64,000 nt of DNA from Desulfobacteraceae bacterium Eth-SRB1 (lineage in GTDB: Bacteria; Desulfobacterota; Desulfobacteria; Desulfobacterales; ETH-SRB1): contig RPGP01000001.1 in the NCBI GenBank assembly GCA_004193555.1, positions 1 through 64,000 of the forward strand, read 5' to 3'. The notes below the pieces were generated by a model that was given only the letters and a program-made list of their open reading frames with translations, did no database searches and was not told the origin of the DNA. The translations under genes were made by a program, and so were the position numbers. Below, in pieces: positions 17,614-56,010 of the stretch (position 1 is its first letter; each line of letters starts with the position of its first letter).

Positions 17614-19722
17614 ATGTCAGAACAGACATCTATCATTCTTGAAGATATTTTAAAAAATACTGAGGTTCAAAAAGCTACCAGCAATATCAATCAGGAACTC
17701 ATTGAAAGGAGAAAATATAAACCTCCTGTATGTGATGTCTTCTCACACCCTTACACTTCTTTGCAAGATAATACCGATTTTCAATTTGTTGTTGACAGGG
17801 AAGCAAAAAAACTGCTGCCAAAAATTATCGATAATAAAGTGGAATGCATTACAGGAGTTGATTCGCCTGAAAAATCCTTTAAAGAAAAATACTGCAAAAA
17901 GCGTAATGTCGGCATTGTATTTTCAGGCGGGCCCGCTCCCGGCGGACATAATGTAATTGCTGGACTATATGATGCGGCTAAAAAAGCTAATCCTGAAAAT
18001 AAAATATTCGGTTTCCTGCTTGGTCCGGACGGAATACTTGAAAATAAAGCTATTGAGCTGACCGACAAGCTTGTCGATGCTTATAGAAACCTTGGTGGTT
18101 TTTCCATGATCAAAACAGGACGTACAAAAATCGACTCCAGAGAAAAAATGCTCCTTACAAAAGAGACATGCAGGAATCTTGGCCTCGATGCCATTGTAAT
18201 TGTCGGAGGCGATGATTCAAATACCAATGCGGCATTTCTGGCACAGGAGATGTTTGACGAAGGTTTGCAGGTTATTGGCGTTCCCAAGACAATTGATGGT
18301 GATATTCAGGTAAAGGATGTTGCAGGCAAAGTTCTGTGCGCTGTCTCCTTTGGTTTCCATACCGCCGCACGCGCCTTTGCCAATGAAATAAGCAATCTGT
18401 GCACAGACAGCAGCTCAGATGTCAAATACTGGCATATTTGCAAGGTTATGGGCAGGGTTGCAAGCCACCTGTCTCTCGAAGTGGCTTTGCAGACTCACGC
18501 TAATATGACACTCATTGGCGAAGAACTTGCCGACTTCATAGATAAGAAAAGGCTTGAAAAAGCAAAAAAAGAAAAAATTGTAGATTACAGCGCCTACGGC
18601 ATGACCCTACGGCATCTTTCCCGCATAATCTGCGACGGCATTGTAAGAAGGGCAGCTGTTGGGAAAAATTACGGAACAATTGTCATACCTGAGGGCGTTC
18701 TGGAATTTATCGATGAAATACAGGTATTTATAATCAAGCTGAATGCAATAATCGCCGACTATAACGAGCTGCACGATACGGATTTTCACTCTGATTTTCC
18801 TTTTCTACGGGATAAGCTGGAATATCTGCGAAGGCTGGCAAGACGGTCCCGTGAAAATAAGTCATTTACTATATGGAATACACGTGATGATGATCTGTTC
18901 GACGATATCCCGGAATTTTTCCAGAAAGGACTTCTAACAGAAAGAGACAGCCACGGTAATTTTCAGTTTTCACTGGTTGAAACAGACAAGGTCGTAATGG
19001 AGCTGGTAACCGACTATCTGAATATTCTTAAAGAAAAGGGGGTTTATAAAATAGGAATAGAAAAAACCTATTATAAAGACACCCTTAATAAGGCAGGCAT
19101 TGATCCTGATTTTTTTGGGCCTGTAATGTTTAAAAACTATGATGATTCTGATCTTCTGCTAATTAAGGAATCTATCATATCTGTTAAAACCCTGAAAAAG
19201 ATCCTGCAAAATGAAGGGGCTGTCAGGGAAAATGAAAAAATCCCCGCATGTGTGGAAAAAATCTTTAGAAAATCGGCTCCAAAGTTCAAGACTCAGGTGC
19301 ATTTTTACGGTTACGACGGGAGGGGAAATGATCCAACCCGGTTTGACTGCGTATATACCTACAACTTGGGGCTAACGGTTTTCAGCCTGATCGCAAACGG
19401 TTCAACCGGCCAGATGGCTGCCATCAGGAATCTGGAAATGGATTTTTCCAGGTGGGAGCCCATCGGAATTCCCATAGCGCCTCTTATGCACCTTGAAGAA
19501 AGAAAGGGAAAGCTGACTCTTGTGTTAGAGAAGAGCGTGGTGGATGTAAATTCCATAGCTTTCAGAGCTGTAAAGGGATTAAGAGAAAAATGGCTTGCGG
19601 CAGCGCCGGGTGATGATAACTTTCGAAGACCTGGGCCAATACGTTTTGCCGGAAAAAGTGAAGAGGACAGGCCGATAACGCTCGTCTTGAATTCACTCCG
19701 CAATAGAGGGGAGAAAAGATGA
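17614..19722 (+). CDS. Pyrophosphate-dependent 6-phosphofructokinase, long form
   Basis: A 702-aa PFK that phosphorylates fructose 6-phosphate. The motif GGDDSNTNA (near 198-206) has Asp where ATP enzymes have Gly, the established marker of PPi use, and PKTIDGDI with the following MGR block forms the catalytic site. N-terminal and C-terminal extensions place it in the long PPi-PFK group. The ATG at 17614 is chosen because GGAGG lies 6 nt upstream; a TTG at 17599 lacks such a site. A 216-bp gap separates it from sucrose phosphorylase. The last three codons and stop (from about 19714) are already in the left end of the repeat element that follows. Confidence 0.9.
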   Translation: MSEQTSIILEDILKNTEVQKATSNINQELIERRKYKPPVCDVFSHPYTSLQDNTDFQFVVDREAKKLLPKIIDNKVECITGVDSPEKSFKEKYCKKRNVGIVFSGGPAPGGHNVIAGLYDAAKKANPENKIFGFLLGPDGILENKAIELTDKLVDAYRNLGGFSMIKTGRTKIDSREKMLLTKETCRNLGLDAIVIVGGDDSNTNAAFLAQEMFDEGLQVIGVPKTIDGDIQVKDVAGKVLCAVSFGFHTAARAFANEISNLCTDSSSDVKYWHICKVMGRVASHLSLEVALQTHANMTLIGEELADFIDKKRLEKAKKEKIVDYSAYGMTLRHLSRIICDGIVRRAAVGKNYGTIVIPEGVLEFIDEIQVFIIKLNAIIADYNELHDTDFHSDFPFLRDKLEYLRRLARRSRENKSFTIWNTRDDDLFDDIPEFFQKGLLTERDSHGNFQFSLVETDKVVMELVTDYLNILKEKGVYKIGIEKTYYKDTLNKAGIDPDFFGPVMFKNYDDSDLLLIKESIISVKTLKKILQNEGAVRENEKIPACVEKIFRKSAPKFKTQVHFYGYDGRGNDPTRFDCVYTYNLGLTVFSLIANGSTGQMAAIRNLEMDFSRWEPIGIPIAPLMHLEERKGKLTLVLEKSVVDVNSIAFRAVKGLREKWLAAAPGDDNFRRPGPIRFAGKSEEDRPITLVLNSLRNRGEKR

Positions 19723-20240
19723 ACATCGAACATCGAACGTCCAACATCGAATGCTGAATGAAAAAAAATGAAGAAACAAACATATAATCTGGAAGAAAGG
19801 CTGCTTGAGTATTCGGTACGAATCATAAAGATCGTTGAACAGATGCCAAATACCAGAACAGGCAACCATGTTGCAGGCCAATTGTTAAGATCGAGAACTT
19901 CACCTTATCCAAACCATGGTGAAGCTCAGGCAGCGGAGTCTTCAAAGGACTTTATCCATAAGCTTCGTATCTCATTAAAGGAACTCAGAGAGACCCAGCG
20001 ATGGTTAAAACTTATTCAGCGTGTGCCTTTAATTAAAAAACCTGAACTATTAGATGATATTTTACAGGGAACAGAGGAATTAATTAAGATTTTCGTTACG
20101 AGTATCAAAACGGCTGAAAAAAACAGAAATAGCTGTTGAATGTTCGATATTGGATGTTTGTTTTTCAATTCTACGTTAAAATAATTTGAGGAGCGGAGCG
20201 ACATCATTATTCGATGTTGGACGTTCGACGTTCATCTTTT
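19714..20240. mobile_element. Inverted-repeat element enclosing a four-helix-bundle protein gene
   Basis: The left end AAAAGATGAACATCGAACAT (continuing CGAACGTCCAACATCGAAT) and the right end, read on the other strand, AAAAGATGAACGTCGAACGT, are inverted copies over about 35-40 bp. The gene at 19768-20139 lies between them. Solo forms of the same repeat without the gene are at 33903-34028 and 54206-54322, and one end is at 32946-33020. The inner right arm with GCGGAGCGACATCATTATTC matches the inside of the solo palindromes. Confidence 0.7.
19768..20139 (+). CDS. Four-helix-bundle protein (23S rRNA intervening-sequence type)
   Basis: A 123-aa helical protein with the pattern LEERLLEYSVRIIKIVEQMP..GNHVAGQLLRSRTSPYPNHGEAQAAES..FIHKLRISLKELRETQRWLKL. 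This is the four-helix-bundle family named after proteins encoded in bacterial 23S rRNA intervening sequences (S23/IVP); diversity-generating retroelement Avd proteins share the fold. Its molecular role is unknown; a basic pentameric nucleic-acid-binding assembly is known for Avd. Here it is not in an rRNA gene but inside a repeat pair (19714-20240), so the gene seems to travel with the repeats. The ATG is preceded only by an A-rich stretch. Confidence 0.85.
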   Translation: MKKQTYNLEERLLEYSVRIIKIVEQMPNTRTGNHVAGQLLRSRTSPYPNHGEAQAAESSKDFIHKLRISLKELRETQRWLKLIQRVPLIKKPELLDDILQGTEELIKIFVTSIKTAEKNRNSC

Positions 20241-20258
20241 AATATTAAGAGGTGGCTT

Positions 20259-20540
20259 ATGGATTTGAAGGTTATGCTGACAACATTTGGCCTGGTATTT
20301 CTGGCAGAGTTAGGGGATAAAACACAGTTTGCCACATTTTGTCTTTCTGCGGATAATGAATCAAAGATCTCTGTATTTTTGGGGTCTGCCTGCGCCCTTG
20401 CAATAACCTCGTTTATTGCTGTTCTGTTTGGCGCGGCATTCAGCCGGTTTATTCCGCAGAATTATATCAAAATCGGAACCGGAGTTTTTTTTATTATTGC
20501 AGGAATATGGTTTTTAATGTCTCCAGCCAGGAGTGTGTAA
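20259..20540 (+). CDS. Half-size GDT1/UPF0016-family membrane transporter
   Basis: A 93-aa membrane protein with three hydrophobic helices and one copy of the signature ELGDKTQ (near residues 16-22). Family members (GDT1, TMEM165, MneA) move Mn2+, Ca2+ or H+ and usually have two such halves; short bacterial forms are thought to act as dimers. The ATG at 20259 is used because AAGAGGTGG precedes it; an earlier ATG at 20214 would translate the repeat element. The stop lies 27 bp inside the convergent transketolase gene. A Ca2+ exchanger of another family lies 3 kb further on. Confidence 0.8.
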
Positions 20541-31575: not shown

Positions 31576-32943
31576 GTGTTAGCGAAGATTTTAGTGGTGG
31601 ATGATGAGCAGCACATGCTCAAGCTGTTTGAAAAAATCCTTACAAAGCAAGGCCATGATGTCCGAACCTCTGCCAGCGGAACCGAGGCGGTCGGTCTATT
31701 GGAAAATAATGACTTTGATCTGATATTTTCCGATCTTGTGATGCCCGACCTTGATGGCATGGACCTGTTAAAGAAGGTGAAAGCCGGATATTCGGATATT
31801 CCTTTTATTGTAATTACAGCCTATGGCTCTATCGAATCCGCGGTTGAGGCTATGAAGACAGGCGCATTCGACTATCTGACCAAGCCTTTCCGCAAAGATG
31901 ATATTCTTCTCGCAGTAGGCAAGGCCTTAAAATATTGCGAACTTTGTAATGAGGTCAAACGGCTCCGCAAAAAGCTGAAAGACAAAGATGGGATTAAAAA
32001 GATTATCGGCAAGAGCAAAGCCGTGCAGAATGTGTTGAAACTCGTTGCCAGGGTGGCAGACAGCCAGGCTACGGTCCTGATCCAGGGAGAAAGCGGCACA
32101 GGCAAGGAGTTAATCGCCCGGCTTATCCACAACCTGAGCAGACGGAGAGACATGCCTTTTATAGCTGTGGATTGCGGTGTTTTCCCGGAACATCTTTTGC
32201 AGAGTGAACTCTTCGGCCATGTCAAAGGGGCATTTACAGGAGCAGTTCAAGACAAGAAAGGGTTGTTTATTGCGGCAGACAGAGGCACGCTTTTTTTAGA
32301 TGAAATCGGGACCATCTCTCAGGCCATGCAGTTAAATCTGCTCCGTGTGCTTCAGGAAAAAGAGGTAAGGCCGGTAGGCAGCGTTACGAATATCAAAGGA
32401 GATGTGCGGGTGGTGGCAGCCACAAGCGTTGACCTTGAGCAAGCCATGCTTGATGGAAGGTTCCGAAGGGATCTTTACTACCGGCTGGCTGTGGTCACCG
32501 TCGATCTGCCCCCCTTGAGGGAAAGAAGGTCTGATATCACTGCGCTGGCATTTCACTTTATGCGAAAATATGCTGCGATTTATGACAGAAAACTCACCGA
32601 TATCACGCCGGAGGCCATGCATGCCATTATGGAAAATCCGTGGACTGGAAATGTCAGAGAGCTTGAGAACGTCATGGAACGCGCAGTGCTTCTAAGCGCC
32701 GGTCAACTTATTGATGAAACTTCGCTGCCCCTGCCTGTCAGGCAAGGGATGTCGCATAAAACCAGGGGGTTGGAATCGTTCAAGAACGCAAGCAAGACCG
32801 CGGGCCGTAACGCGGAAAGGAAAGCTATATTAAAGACACTGGAAGGGACCGGCGGCAATAAAACAAAGGCAGCCAGGATTTTAGGGATAAGTCGAAGTTC
32901 ATTGTATAATAAAATATGCGAGTTTGGAATTGGGAAATCGTAA
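31576..32943 (+). CDS. NtrC-family sigma54-dependent response regulator
   Basis: A 455-aa activator. The receiver has VVDDEQ, acceptor Asp in IFSDLVMPDLDG and Lys in YLTKPF. The AAA+ domain has GESGTGKE, HVKGAFTGA and LFLDEIG. The C-terminal Fis-type helix-turn-helix is NKTKAARILGISRSSLYNKI. I prefer the GTG at 31576, which has TTGAGGTGG ideally spaced upstream; a GTG at 31567 overlaps that site. It pairs with the kinase just upstream. The sigma54 promoter at 34167 and the transport genes after it are plausible targets. The gene ends just before a repeat end at 32946. Confidence 0.92.
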   Translation: MLAKILVVDDEQHMLKLFEKILTKQGHDVRTSASGTEAVGLLENNDFDLIFSDLVMPDLDGMDLLKKVKAGYSDIPFIVITAYGSIESAVEAMKTGAFDYLTKPFRKDDILLAVGKALKYCELCNEVKRLRKKLKDKDGIKKIIGKSKAVQNVLKLVARVADSQATVLIQGESGTGKELIARLIHNLSRRRDMPFIAVDCGVFPEHLLQSELFGHVKGAFTGAVQDKKGLFIAADRGTLFLDEIGTISQAMQLNLLRVLQEKEVRPVGSVTNIKGDVRVVAATSVDLEQAMLDGRFRRDLYYRLAVVTVDLPPLRERRSDITALAFHFMRKYAAIYDRKLTDITPEAMHAIMENPWTGNVRELENVMERAVLLSAGQLIDETSLPLPVRQGMSHKTRGLESFKNASKTAGRNAERKAILKTLEGTGGNKTKAARILGISRSSLYNKICEFGIGKS

Positions 32944-32945
32944 AA

Positions 32946-33020
32946 TGAGATGAACGTCCAACATCGAACATCCAACATCGAATTTCGAATAAGGAAAGCG
33001 CCTTTGGCGTTGCCAATTTT
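32946..33020. repeat. One-sided ACATCGAAC-type repeat end
   Basis: GATGAACGTCCAACATCGAA followed by CATCCAACATCGAATTTCGA matches the termini of the four-helix-bundle element (19714-20240). The opposite arm is missing; only an AGCGAAGCGAC motif remains at 33037. It starts 3 bp after the NtrC stop codon. Confidence 0.6.
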
Positions 33021-33167
33021 ATTTGAATTAATTGAGCGAAGCGACTCCTTAACTTTAGGCACTTTAACATACTTTAGTTCACTTTTAGGCACTTCATGTT
33101 CCCGATCAAAGATAGAAACCACCTCTAAAAAGTGTAAATTGGTAAATGAAGGAGGCTCCATATCATT

Positions 33168-33731
33168 ATGAAACAATCATTGCTTGTCCATGAATCTCCC
33201 TCAATCGTCCGCATAGTTACATCGCTCCTTGAAGGCGATGGATATGAGGTCACATGCATGGAAAATGGTAAGGCCGCTCTACAAAACGTGACAGGGCTGA
33301 AATATGATGTTCTTGTCACAGGATTAAATATACCGGAGATGAACGGCCTGGAATTGATAAAAAATATCAGGCTTCGAAATAATTGTATTCCCATTATAAT
33401 TCTGTCCAACACAAAAAGTGTTGAGACAGCGGTTGAGGCAATGCGGATCGGAGCTGACGATTTTGTCGTTGAAAAGACTGAGAATCTTGGGAAAACGTTT
33501 CTTTTTGTTATTGAAAGAGCTATACAATCGAAGAGAGCGGAAAGACGCCTGCAGATATACGAATCTAATCTTCCGATATGCATGCATTGCAAGAGGATAC
33601 GTTATGAGAGGGAAAATGCGAAGAAAGTATGGGTTCCTATTGAGGAGTATTTTAACGAGAAAATGTCCGGAGTAAATTTTTCTCATGGAATATGCCCCGA
33701 ATGCATTAACAAATATTATCCTGATACATAG
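33168..33731 (+). CDS. Degenerate receiver fused to a four-cysteine module
   Basis: A 187-aa protein. Residues 1-120 have the receiver fold, but the acidic pocket reads LVHESPS instead of VDDxxx, and the acceptor Asp is replaced by Gly52 in VLVTGLNIPEMNG, while Lys103 is kept. It cannot be phosphorylated in the usual way. A helix follows, then a C-terminal module with C138-x2-C141 (ICMHCKRIR) and C176-x2-C179 (FSHGICPEC), a small module often attached to signalling proteins in Desulfobacterota and likely to bind zinc. It is probably a phosphorylation-independent adaptor. It lies between NtrC and CheY-like genes on the same strand. AAGGAGG lies further upstream than usual. Confidence 0.8.
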   Translation: MKQSLLVHESPSIVRIVTSLLEGDGYEVTCMENGKAALQNVTGLKYDVLVTGLNIPEMNGLELIKNIRLRNNCIPIIILSNTKSVETAVEAMRIGADDFVVEKTENLGKTFLFVIERAIQSKRAERRLQIYESNLPICMHCKRIRYERENAKKVWVPIEEYFNEKMSGVNFSHGICPECINKYYPDT

Positions 33732-33806
33732 CCGTTCACGGCTTGAAACTTGAAATTGGAAAGAACAGCACAAAAGCATGAAGGCCAAATTTCCAATTTC
33801 TATTTT
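33729..33806. repeat. GCCGTTCACGGC-type repeat (palindromic copy)
   Basis: TAGCCGTTCACGGCTTGAAA followed by TTGAAATTGGAAA at the left, with TTTCCAATTTC near 33787-33799 as the opposing arm. It begins at the stop codon of the degenerate-receiver gene. The same left block occurs at 9273 and 38947. Confidence 0.6.
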
Positions 33807-33902
33807 CGTAATAATTTAGCGTTTTGAAAATTTGACTGTTTTCGTTGAGATATTGTTAGCTCGAAAAAGCATTATTTGAATGTCGAATATGGAACATATT
33901 AA

Positions 33903-34028
33903 AAGATGAACGTCCAACATCGAACATCGAATAATGAAATCGCTTCGCTCCGTCAGTTTATAGATTGGCAGAATACCTTATTCAACATTCGATGTTGGAC
34001 GTTCGATGTTCGATGTTCATTTTTTATA
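33903..34028. mobile_element. Solo palindrome of the four-helix-bundle element family
   Basis: Ends AAAAGATGAACGTCCAACAT and, inverted, AAAAAATGAACATCGAACAT. The centre ATCGCTTCGCTCCGTCAGTT with GGCAGAATACCTTATTCA is nearly the same as in the copy at 54206-54322. It contains no gene and looks like a derivative of the 19714-20240 element with the gene lost, or the non-autonomous form. Confidence 0.7.
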
Positions 34029-34165
34029 GAAGTGTCCAAACAAATGGACACTGTCCATCATTCTGAACAAAAATACACTCTTCCACTACCAGCCCAGCCA
34101 GCCTCACCATTAATAATTAAATGTTAATACAACAAGTTATCGTTTTGCATCGTTAACCCTCCTCC

Positions 34166-54132: not shown

Positions 54133-54205
54133 ACCGTTCACGGAACGTTGAAATTAGAAATTGGAAATTTGGCCCGAACCTAAAAGCTATGAACCTAAAA
54201 GCTAT

Positions 54206-54322
54206 GAACATCGAACGTCGAACATCGAATAATGATGTCGCTCCGCTCTGCCAGTTTATAAAATGCCAGAATACCTTATTCAAAATTCGATGTTGAATGT
54301 TCGATGTTGGACGTTCATCTTT
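54206..54322. mobile_element. Solo palindrome of the four-helix-bundle element family
   Basis: GAACATCGAACGTCGAACAT at the left is complementary to the right end TTCGATGTTGGACGTTCATC. The central block GATGTCGCTCCGCTCTGCCA followed by GTTTATAAAATGCCAGAATA corresponds to that of 33903-34028. It lies between the convergent ubiB and ETF-QO genes, preceded by an AAGCTATGAAC tandem duplication and a CCGTTCACGG remnant at about 54133. Confidence 0.7.
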
Positions 54323-54339
54323 TCTCGTTCAACGTTCAT

Positions 54340-56010
54340 CTACAATATTGAATAACCCGGCCCGTCTCCCCCTTCCGGGCATGTCCATGTGATGTTTTTA
54401 TAAGGATCTTTTATTTCGCATGTTTTGCAGTGAAGACAATTTGAAGGATTAAGTTTAAGCCGTCTTTGCGAGCCGTTTTCCTCGATTTCGTAAACATTAC
54501 CCAGGCAGAATCTTATACATGGGCATTGATAGGTAGTATAACATTCATTCATGCACAGATTTTGATCGTGGATAACGATATGGCACGGCTGATCCTCCCT
54601 GTGCATGGTCTTTGACAGATAAACTCCTGTAAGTTTGTCAACATATAAAACACCATCAAAAACCTTGTTATCAGTACCCGTCTCTTTAAAGTCTATAATA
54701 CCTGTTTTTACAGGCCGCAATGTTCTGTAATCTTTTTCAAGAGGCATTTTGTCACATATTCCGCGTCCTTTTGTGAAATACTGGGCGCCAAGATGGATAA
54801 ATTTTATCAATCCTTTTTTTGACATGGCCTGGGAAAAGTTTCTTCCCTCATAAATTTCTTTTTTTGACCAGCTTTTTTCAAACAATTCATGATAATTACC
54901 GAGCGTTTCCTGTGTAAAGCTGTTTTTTTCACAGGCTTTTATGATCGCCTCTGCTGCCAGCATACCGGATTTCATGGAAACATGTATGCCCTTTAGCCCG
55001 GGAGTATTTTGCATTGACGCACTGCCGCCGATAAATACTCCGCCATTTACAACGAGCCTGGGAATAGTATAATATCCTCCGGAGGAAACGGTTCTTGCTC
55101 CCTGTTCGACTACCTTACCGTTTTGGATGATTTGTGATATTAAAGGATGGCGTTTGAATTTAATGAACTCGTCATACAGGTCAAGCATCGGCTCCTGATA
55201 TGAAAGACCTGCGAGAAATCCCAGGGATGCTTTGTTATCTCCCATTTCATAGATAAAACCGCCGCCAGGTGTATTAATGCCCAGCGGATAGCCGAAGGTA
55301 TGGATATCATTCCCTTTGCTGGTCTTAAAATAGTTGTTTTCAGGAAGCTGTATAACCTCTTTGATGCCTGTTTCAAAGACCTGGGGCATCTTTCCGGAAA
55401 AGATATCAAATCTTTTTGCAACATTCTGCATAAGACTTCCCATTGGCCCTTCTCCGAACACAGTAACCCCGGCTAATATATCTATTCCCGGCTCAAAATT
55501 GCCTTTAGGCTTACCTTCTTTATCAAGCCCCTTGTCTCCTGTGCGTATTCCGATGATTGACTTATTGTCCGGAGAGTAAAGGACCTCTTTTCCTGCAAAA
55601 CCCGGAAAGATATTTATTCCAAGCTGTTCGGCAATTTCCGCAAGCCATCTTGTGAACCGTGAAAGGCTTATAATATAAAAGCCTTTATTTCGCATATATC
55701 GCGGCGTATAAGGAAGACGATAATATTTGCTTTCGGTCAGAAAGTAAAATTCGTCTTCTCTTACAGTTGATTCAACAGGGCATCCTCTTTCAAGAAAATC
55801 AGGCATAAGCTCCTTTAATGCAACAGGATTCAACACAGCCCCGCTCAAAGCGTGTGATCCTATTTCAGCCCCTTTTTCAATAATAGCAACTTCAAGGTTT
55901 ATCCCTTTTTGCCCGGCTAACTGCATTAATCTAATGGAGCCCGCAAGACTTGCAGGGCCGCCTCCAACAAAAAGTATGTCAAAAGATATCTGTTCATGTT
56001 CTATATTCAT
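54340..56010 (-). CDS. Electron transfer flavoprotein:quinone oxidoreductase
   Basis: A 556-aa peripheral membrane flavoprotein that passes electrons from reduced ETF to the quinone pool. The FAD dinucleotide motif is FVGGGPAS (about 14-21), followed by EKGAEIGSHALSGAVL. The C-terminal ferredoxin-like part (about 475-556) carries cysteines for the 4Fe-4S cluster (CPCIRFC and NCLHCKTCEIKDP), with the family ending TWTCPEGGDGPGY. The length matches the family. The acyl-CoA dehydrogenase gene 2.5 kb upstream is the obvious supplier, through an ETF encoded elsewhere. No strong ribosome site precedes the ATG. Confidence 0.95.
   Translation of the reverse strand: MNIEHEQISFDILFVGGGPASLAGSIRLMQLAGQKGINLEVAIIEKGAEIGSHALSGAVLNPVALKELMPDFLERGCPVESTVREDEFYFLTESKYYRLPYTPRYMRNKGFYIISLSRFTRWLAEIAEQLGINIFPGFAGKEVLYSPDNKSIIGIRTGDKGLDKEGKPKGNFEPGIDILAGVTVFGEGPMGSLMQNVAKRFDIFSGKMPQVFETGIKEVIQLPENNYFKTSKGNDIHTFGYPLGINTPGGGFIYEMGDNKASLGFLAGLSYQEPMLDLYDEFIKFKRHPLISQIIQNGKVVEQGARTVSSGGYYTIPRLVVNGGVFIGGSASMQNTPGLKGIHVSMKSGMLAAEAIIKACEKNSFTQETLGNYHELFEKSWSKKEIYEGRNFSQAMSKKGLIKFIHLGAQYFTKGRGICDKMPLEKDYRTLRPVKTGIIDFKETGTDNKVFDGVLYVDKLTGVYLSKTMHREDQPCHIVIHDQNLCMNECYTTYQCPCIRFCLGNVYEIEENGSQRRLKLNPSNCLHCKTCEIKDPYKNITWTCPEGGDGPGYSIL

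What the first reader, a model, noticed from the sequence alone, without database searches (positions are those of the whole stretch)
19714..20240. A four-helix-bundle gene travels inside an inverted-repeat element that also exists as solo palindromes
Seen: the gene at 19768 is enclosed by about 40-bp inverted repeats; the same repeats form two gene-less palindromes with a shared centre (33903-34028, 54206-54322) and a one-sided relic (32946). The upstream PFK gene takes its last codons and stop from the repeat. This resembles a REP/RAYT or IVS system with autonomous and non-autonomous forms, but the protein is not a known transposase. It may bind the hairpin as RNA or DNA.
Basis: partly seen in the sequence, partly recalled or inferred. 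Interest (0 to 1): 0.7.

Follow-up and report, generated by a model that had tools for sequence, protein, structure and literature searches.

The report
Mobile hairpins with private seven-letter repeats
A tiny bacterial gene is boxed in by mirrored runs of a seven-letter DNA repeat; the same repeat accompanies this gene in several bacterial phyla and also occurs as gene-less hairpins that some relatives have and others lack, so the gene is likely part of a small mobile element whose protein would recognise its own repeat.

Summary
The gene (19768-20139) belongs to PF05635/TIGR02436 (23S rRNA-intervening-sequence protein, IVP/S23). Its inverted repeats are arrays of an imperfect heptamer, SAAYRTY (e.g. 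GAACATC). About 40 places in this genome match the palindrome (a lower bound), most without the gene. Gene-less palindromes match gene-bearing copies at both ends, as internal-deletion derivatives would. Same-family relatives lack them at three orthologous sites. The heptamer flanks the gene on both sides in 7 of 7 relatives at least 60% identical and in 0 of 94 below 30%; in other phyla mostly too (59 of 79 loci). Other PF05635 genes sit between inverted arrays of other units, mostly 7 nt, and the unit follows the protein clade, not the genome. The '32946 relic' is a mosaic of two units. No rRNA match at the window or 20 other loci; reverse transcriptase is dispensable. My reading: a transposase-less mobile element, the dispersed kin of 23S intervening sequences, whose four-helix protein likely reads its own repeat and would act in trans on gene-less copies. 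Recognition and movement are inferred. A Coxiella IVS paper already reports heptamers before its S23 gene; my searches found no statement of the general rule.

The parts
19714..19757 (+). 5' arm: array of the SAAYRTY heptamer upstream of the gene; carries the PFK stop codon (19720-19722)
   Evidence: 46 nt 96% identical to the end of the solo palindrome
19768..20139 (+). Four-helix-bundle gene, PF05635 / TIGR02436 (23S rRNA IVP, S23 family), 123 aa
   Evidence: model and fold match; purifying selection
20135..20152 (-). Short inverted heptamer stretch overlapping the stop codon of the gene
20190..20209 (+). 3' segment GGAGCGGAGCGACATCATTA, shared with the gene-less palindromes
   Evidence: 66 nt, 86%, together with the 3' arm
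20210..20240 (-). 3' arm: inverted heptamer array
33903..34028 (-). Gene-less palindrome (given strand is that of the missing gene), absent at the orthologous site in G004; G005 has a short hairpin there, G014 another insert
54206..54322 (-). Gene-less palindrome; the interval 54134-54341 around it is missing in G003 and G012
32952..32983 (+). Left half of a mosaic palindrome: GAACATC-type array
   Evidence: interval absent in G004, G005, G015
33053..33094 (-). Right half of the mosaic: TTTAGGCAC-type array (unit of the PF05635 genes L004 and L005)
   Evidence: read by eye against L004/L005

Best explanation
A small four-helix-bundle gene sits between inverted arrays of a seven-base repeat, and its protein likely recognises that repeat and would help both the gene-bearing element and its gene-less hairpin copies to spread. 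Shown: the arrangement (PF05635 gene inside inverted tandem arrays) recurs in many genomes; gene-less copies match both ends of gene-bearing copies; insertions are present or absent at orthologous sites; the unit sequence follows the protein clade across genomes and phyla; the protein is under purifying selection. Inferred: the protein binds the array as a folded single strand (hairpin RNA or ssDNA), which would fit the strand polarity of the arms; it would be the recognition subunit, with cutting and joining borrowed from host enzymes, since family scans of the protein show no transposase or nuclease domain; and 23S rRNA intervening sequences would be the same kind of element landed in rRNA genes.
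For: Own heptamer on both sides: 7 of 7 genes at >=60% identity, 4 of 6 at 40-60%, 2 of 16 at 30-40%, 0 of 94 below 30%; 59 of 79 named-organism loci, far windows 3 of 69. Inverted arms exceed the maximum of 111 outward controls in 73 of 123 PF05635 genes, 33 of 41 genomes; 55 of those 73 arms have a significant tandem period, 7 nt in 39. Arm similarity tracks protein identity between genomes, Mantel 0 of 500 permutations. Empty sites. Solo copies share both ends with gene-bearing copies. Outside the family, palindromes occur in 8 of 41 genomes, exactly those with a gene or fragment at least 70% identical. Transfer: the gene is closer than PFK between G000 and G032 or G004. dN/dS 0.09-0.26 in five unsaturated pairs.
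Against: Inside the family the pairing breaks: palindromes in 16 of 17 genomes, the gene or a fragment (>=70%) in 5. A second unit is weaker: outside the family 4 of 5 genomes with the gene and 4 of 36 without have palindromes, and 12 family genomes have palindromes without the gene. The two arms of one copy do not covary, so no evidence that the hairpin itself is selected. 50 of 123 genes do not exceed the outward controls. No clean target duplication and no clean empty site for the gene-bearing copy itself. Wrong-orientation motif pairs in 20 of 79 loci. No binding or movement was observed.
Confidence: 0.6

Rival explanations
1. The palindromes are moved by IS200/IS605-type or RAYT (Y1) transposases as REP-like sequences, and the four-helix gene is passive cargo caught between them.
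For: Y1_Tnp is present in 54 of 58 genomes, 14 matches in this one; REPINs have the same layout of dispersed inverted repeats served in trans (PMC3116915, passages).
Against: Cargo would not explain why the unit follows the protein clade or why the same genome holds several clades each with its own unit. Y1_Tnp was not found in G024, G027 and G038, each with 2 PF05635 matches (G027 is 83% complete).
Confidence: 0.15
2. The arrays are regulatory hairpins at gene ends (mRNA stability or termination) and the protein is an RNA-binding regulator that was spread with them; the elements are not selfish.
For: Strong predicted hairpins; 28 of 29 solo copies examined do not lie within an ORF of 80 aa or more spanning them; purifying selection on the protein.
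Against: Presence or absence at orthologous sites between related species and different palindromes at the same site fit turnover better than a conserved regulatory role; arms of one copy do not covary.
Confidence: 0.12
3. The arrays arise by replication slippage or gene conversion at hairpins, and PF05635 genes merely tolerate them.
For: Unit number varies between copies and, in Coxiella IVS, between strains (PMC4990558, passages).
Against: Slippage does not explain inverted arrays on both sides of one gene family (73 of 123 above all 111 outward controls) or a unit shared across phyla.
Confidence: 0.08
4. The element is a retroelement relative: the protein works like Avd with a reverse transcriptase encoded elsewhere.
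For: Same fold as Avd (4dwl, TM 0.62-0.63 by query length); 12 RT matches in this genome.
Against: No RT match in G001, G005, G014, G023, G032, G052 or G056, which hold 2 to 23 PF05635 matches each (drafts, so an RT may be missed). The nearest listed RT in this genome is more than 300 kb from the window gene.
Confidence: 0.05

Closest known systems
23S rRNA intervening sequences (IVS) with an S23/IVP ORF (Coxiella, Leptospira; PMC4990558, passages read)
   Same: Protein of the same family; terminal inverted repeats that form a stem (28 bp in Coxiella); tandem heptamers (GACAGAT) just before the ORF; origin as a mobile element proposed there
   Different: Here the element is intergenic (no rRNA match), present in many copies, with gene-less forms and with a different unit for each protein clade
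REPIN/RAYT (PMC3116915, passages read)
   Same: Dispersed inverted-repeat hairpins thought to be served in trans by a single protein that carries the same repeats beside its gene; co-evolution of repeat and protein
   Different: The protein is a four-helix bundle, not a Y1 transposase; the ends are tandem 7- to 9-nt arrays; gene-bearing copies are themselves flanked and occur twice in this genome
Miniature inverted-repeat elements (MITEs; recalled)
   Same: Gene-less copies keep both ends of a gene-bearing element
   Different: No transposase in the gene-bearing copy; no target duplication seen
Avd of diversity-generating retroelements (PMC10053308, passages read; 4dwl)
   Same: Related fold; that review states the resemblance of PF05635 and Avd
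   Different: No reverse transcriptase nearby, and RT absent from several element-bearing genomes
Multicopy heptamer repeats of Geobacter metallireducens (PMC2700814) and Beggiatoaceae (PMC4679880), passages read
   Same: Tandem 7-nt units in many places, function unknown
   Different: No link to a four-helix gene appears in the passages read; not tested here

Membership tests
PF05635 / TIGR02436 (23S rRNA IVP, S23) protein family | Score above the curated cut-off | tested here: met
   49.2 bits against 33.8; 83.5 against 24
PF05635 / TIGR02436 (23S rRNA IVP, S23) protein family | Four-helix-bundle fold as in 2rld and 2gsc | tested here: met
   Model pLDDT 83.6; TM 0.75-0.79 to 2rld, 0.73-0.79 to 2gsc
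23S rRNA intervening sequence (IVS) | Located inside a 23S rRNA gene | tested here: not met
   No Rfam match in the window or in 20 other PF05635 loci
23S rRNA intervening sequence (IVS) | S23 ORF between terminal inverted repeats | tested here: met
   73 of 123 related genes above all controls
23S rRNA intervening sequence (IVS) | RNA excised by RNase III | not testable with these tools
   Needs an RNA experiment
REPIN/RAYT | Y1 (RAYT) transposase as the associated gene | tested here: not met
   The gene's Pfam match is PF05635 only
REPIN/RAYT | Dispersed gene-less inverted-repeat hairpins with the repeat found beside the gene | tested here: met
MITE / DNA transposon | Gene-less copies share both ends with a gene-bearing element | tested here: met
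MITE / DNA transposon | Target-site duplication | tested here: inconclusive
   Three filled/empty sites aligned; junctions are not clean
MITE / DNA transposon | Transposase in the gene-bearing copy | tested here: not met
   Only a PF05635 / TIGR02436 protein
Diversity-generating retroelement (Avd) | Reverse transcriptase partner | tested here: not met
   No listed RT match within 300 kb of the gene; no RT match in seven element-bearing genomes

The most novel reading that the evidence does not exclude
PF05635 proteins are the recognition heads of a large class of transposase-free mobile elements: each protein clade reads its own 7- to 9-nt tandem repeat, set as inverted arrays around its gene, and spreads gene-less hairpins that carry that repeat. 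Ribosomal intervening sequences and many unexplained heptamer repeats of bacterial genomes would belong to this class, and the pairing of protein and repeat would form a readable recognition code.
Probability: 0.35. Interest if true: 0.9.

Novelty: new variant of a known kind. Interest (0 to 1): 0.75.

Why it matters
The origin and mobility of 23S intervening sequences, and the role of their S23 protein, are described as unresolved in the paper I read (PMC4990558, passages). Here the same protein family is tied to its own repeat across phyla, with gene-bearing and gene-less forms and with filled and empty sites. That gives a direct test: does each protein bind its own repeat and not its neighbour's? 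If so, a widespread 'hypothetical' family gains a function and a class of multicopy bacterial repeats gains an owner.

Tried and rejected
Covariation of the two arms within a copy: no signal (same copy 24.48, other copies 24.20; 1138 of 5000 permutations reach it; 27 of 30 copies used). Stop codons supplied by element ends: beyond PFK a few copies have stops within 6 nt of a boundary, by my rough hand count about what chance gives, so no rule is claimed (29 of 30 copies examined). rRNA location: no Rfam match. RT and Y1 transposase as obligate partners: RT missing in several element-bearing genomes, Y1 nearly everywhere. Perfect gene-palindrome co-occurrence: holds outside the family only, weaker for a second unit. 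Phage carriage: one relative in the viral scan. Literature: searches gave no paper that states the general pairing of PF05635 genes with inverted heptamer arrays; of the 334 papers only 15 were listed, and subscription papers and bioRxiv are not held.

Rows dropped: 155 loci were examined; 154 gave an ORF hit (163 hits); 132 hits were near full length, 127 unique, 123 with at least 150 nt on both sides. They came and from 80 places that I picked by hand from the cut-short list, favouring long hits away from contig ends. In that set the mismatched-pair null is inflated because most members share the unit: 16 of 79 exceed its 99% level, 35 its 95% level; the motif count is the cleaner test. In the 58-genome set the stricter mismatched-pair 99% level (23) is exceeded by 55 of 123, and by 13 of 384 same-genome mismatched pairs.

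Full report
WHAT IS THERE. The ORF 19768-20139 encodes 123 aa and scores above the curated cut-offs of PF05635 (23S_rRNA_IVP, 49.2 bits) and TIGR02436 (four helix bundle protein, 83.5 bits). An AlphaFold2 model (pLDDT 83.6) matches 2rld and 2gsc, and more weakly Avd 4dwl. The gene lies between inverted arms that are arrays of an imperfect heptamer with the pattern SAAYRTY, such as GAACATC and CAACATC. The gene-less palindromes at 33903-34028 and 54206-54322 are as described. The '32946 relic' has a GAACATC-type left arm and a TTTAGGCAC-type right arm (the second unit is that of L004/L005), so it is a mosaic of two unit families.

THE GENOME. The window lies in a 3.34-Mb assembly (98% complete) with 16 PF05635 matches. 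The palindrome query gave 118 rows, about 40 places by hand grouping; only 40 of 135 first-look candidates were scored, so this is a lower bound. Thirty copies printed side by side share both arms, with a variable number of units, and a directional core of about 60 nt (by eye). Read in gene orientation, the solo copy 33903-34028 matches gene-bearing copies at the 5' arm (46 nt; 96% in the window copy, 98% in L162, L135, L284 and L287) and at the 3' end (66 nt, 86% in the window copy, including GGAGCGAAGCGA). The simplest reading is an internal deletion that removed the gene and kept both ends.

THE SAME RULE WITH OTHER UNITS. Other PF05635 genes of this genome lie between inverted arrays of other units: ATCAGGG (L001), GATGTCGGAGATCA (L003), TTTAGGCAC-like (L004, L005), AAAGCTC-like (L009); L006 and L008 showed none of note. 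I tested 123 genes from 41 of the 58 genomes. The local alignment score of the upstream against the reverse-complemented downstream flank had median 22, against 11 for mismatched pairs and 11 for the same loci 550-800 nt outward. It exceeded the maximum of 111 outward controls (20) in 73 of 123 genes, in 33 of 41 genomes. In 55 of those 73 arms the tandem period is significant: 7 nt in 39, 8 in 11, 9 in 4, 6 in 1. Pooled match fractions at lags 7, 14, 21 and 28 are 0.46, 0.42, 0.39 and 0.37, against about 0.26 further upstream. The upstream arm has more G than C on the coding strand in 65 of these loci and fewer in 7.

THE UNIT FOLLOWS THE PROTEIN. Between different genomes, the share of gene pairs whose arms match crosswise (score 20 or more) is 0.89, 0.75 and 0.69 at protein identity 90% or more, 80-90% and 70-80%, then 0.41 at 60-70%, 0.16 at 50-60% and 0.01-0.06 below. 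Same-genome pairs below 50% match in 0-0.11. No Mantel permutation of 500 reached the observed value, though the correlation over all pairs is small (0.143). For the window's own heptamer pair, in correct orientation on both sides: 7 of 7 genes at least 60% identical, 4 of 6 at 40-60%, 2 of 16 at 30-40%, 0 of 94 below 30%.

OTHER PHYLA. A scan of named genomes with the window-type alignment kept the best 80 loci, 53-93% identical. Of 79 usable loci, 69 have the heptamer pair upstream, 62 inverted downstream, 59 both; 3 of 69 far windows have it in either orientation. Record titles name, among others, Desulfobacterales, Chlamydiota, Kiritimatiellota, Lentisphaerae, Verrucomicrobia, Planctomycetes, Armatimonadetes and Cloacimonadota. 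Many are short contigs of metagenome bins, where mis-binning is possible; one is a complete Kiritimatiellota chromosome (L349, 61%) whose upstream flank is a long array of this unit.

MOBILITY. (a) Presence and absence. The interval around 54206-54322 is missing in G003 and G012, where the two converging genes nearly abut; G005 has about 15 bases there, G001 the same palindrome, G008 a palindrome in the other orientation, G014 a longer compound one, G007 a different AT-rich insert. The mosaic interval (about 32941-33162) is missing in G004, G005 and G015, and G014 has a different insert. At the 33903 site G004 lacks the palindrome, G005 has a short hairpin and G014 a different insert. (b) At the PFK site the sister species G001 has a gene-less palindrome, and G003, G007 and G012 show none; the downstream neighbour differs in the window, so this is no clean empty site for the gene-bearing copy. 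(c) Transfer. The gene is 89% identical in G032 and 92% (93 aa) in G004, where PFK is 74% and 78%; synonymous differences per site are 0.45 and 0.14 against 0.76 and 0.72 (one reference gene). (d) Co-occurrence. Outside the family the palindrome is found in 8 of 41 genomes, exactly those with a gene or fragment at least 70% identical (four of the eight are partial matches); Fisher 1e-8. Inside the family this breaks: 16 of 17 genomes have palindromes, 5 have such a gene or fragment. A second unit gave, outside the family, palindromes in 4 of 5 genomes with the gene and 4 of 36 without (Fisher 0.003), and 12 family genomes with palindromes but no gene. Gene-less copies therefore outlive the gene or are served by others. 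Genomes are not independent, so the P values are rough.

HOW IT LIKELY WORKS. The protein is kept by purifying selection (dN/dS 0.09-0.26 in five unsaturated pairs), is basic (pI 9.7) and shares near-invariant Q38, S45, E52 and E75 with the family (122, 120, 117 and 120 of 123). A relative from Xanthomonas forms a ring of five (PMC4990558, passages). I infer that the protein binds the array as a folded single strand and is the recognition subunit of the element. The predicted hairpins are strong (z -4.1 to -6.2), but the arms of one copy do not covary, so the folded form is unproven. Family scans of the protein found no catalytic domain; cutting and joining would come from the host. RT is not required: no match in several element-rich genomes, among them G052 with 23 and G056 with 18 PF05635 matches. 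Y1 transposases are too common to tell.

WHAT IS KNOWN. The Coxiella IVS paper (passages read) reports an S23 ORF between terminal inverted repeats, three tandem heptamers before the start codon, their number varying between strains, and mobility as an open hypothesis. That fits the rule found here. Other heptamer reports (PMC2700814, PMC4679880; passages) make no such link in what I read. Nine searches found no paper stating the general pairing. I file the protein in PF05635. I do not file the element as an IVS (not in rRNA) or as REPIN/RAYT (no Y1 transposase), though it works like both.

Noticed in passing
32952-33094: Mosaic palindrome: left arm of the GAACATC unit, right arm of the TTTAGGCAC unit; suggests recombination between two element families.
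   Followed up: partly
L286, L289, L342, L346, L361 (both flanks): CATAAGCGCTAACTT or a close variant stands inverted on both outer sides of the element; GGGCGCTAA also lies just right of 6 of 30 solo copies in this genome (L022, L023, L024, L030, L034, L039). It may be an outer end or another dispersed palindrome.
   Followed up: partly
L365 and L366, site orthologous to window 33730-34030: G014 has an insert with GAAATTG-like repeats bounded by CCGTTTACGG / CCGTGAACG; G005 keeps only TAGCCGTTCACG-TTCCGTGAACG, which looks like a footprint or an empty hairpin.
   Followed up: no
20214-20540: The 3' arm gives the downstream gene an in-frame upstream ATG (20214), so automatic ORF calls extend that gene into the repeat.
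   Followed up: no
L022, L030, L032, L034, L039, L042 flanks (this genome): Several solo copies share longer left flanks (GGATATAGGTGAATTTTT or close), so some may belong to larger composite repeats.
   Followed up: no
L392 (viral contig): A 51% identical relative lies near the end of a 26-kb IMG/VR contig.
   Followed up: no
G052 and G056 (same order): Unusually many PF05635 matches, 23 and 18, with no RT match.
   Followed up: no
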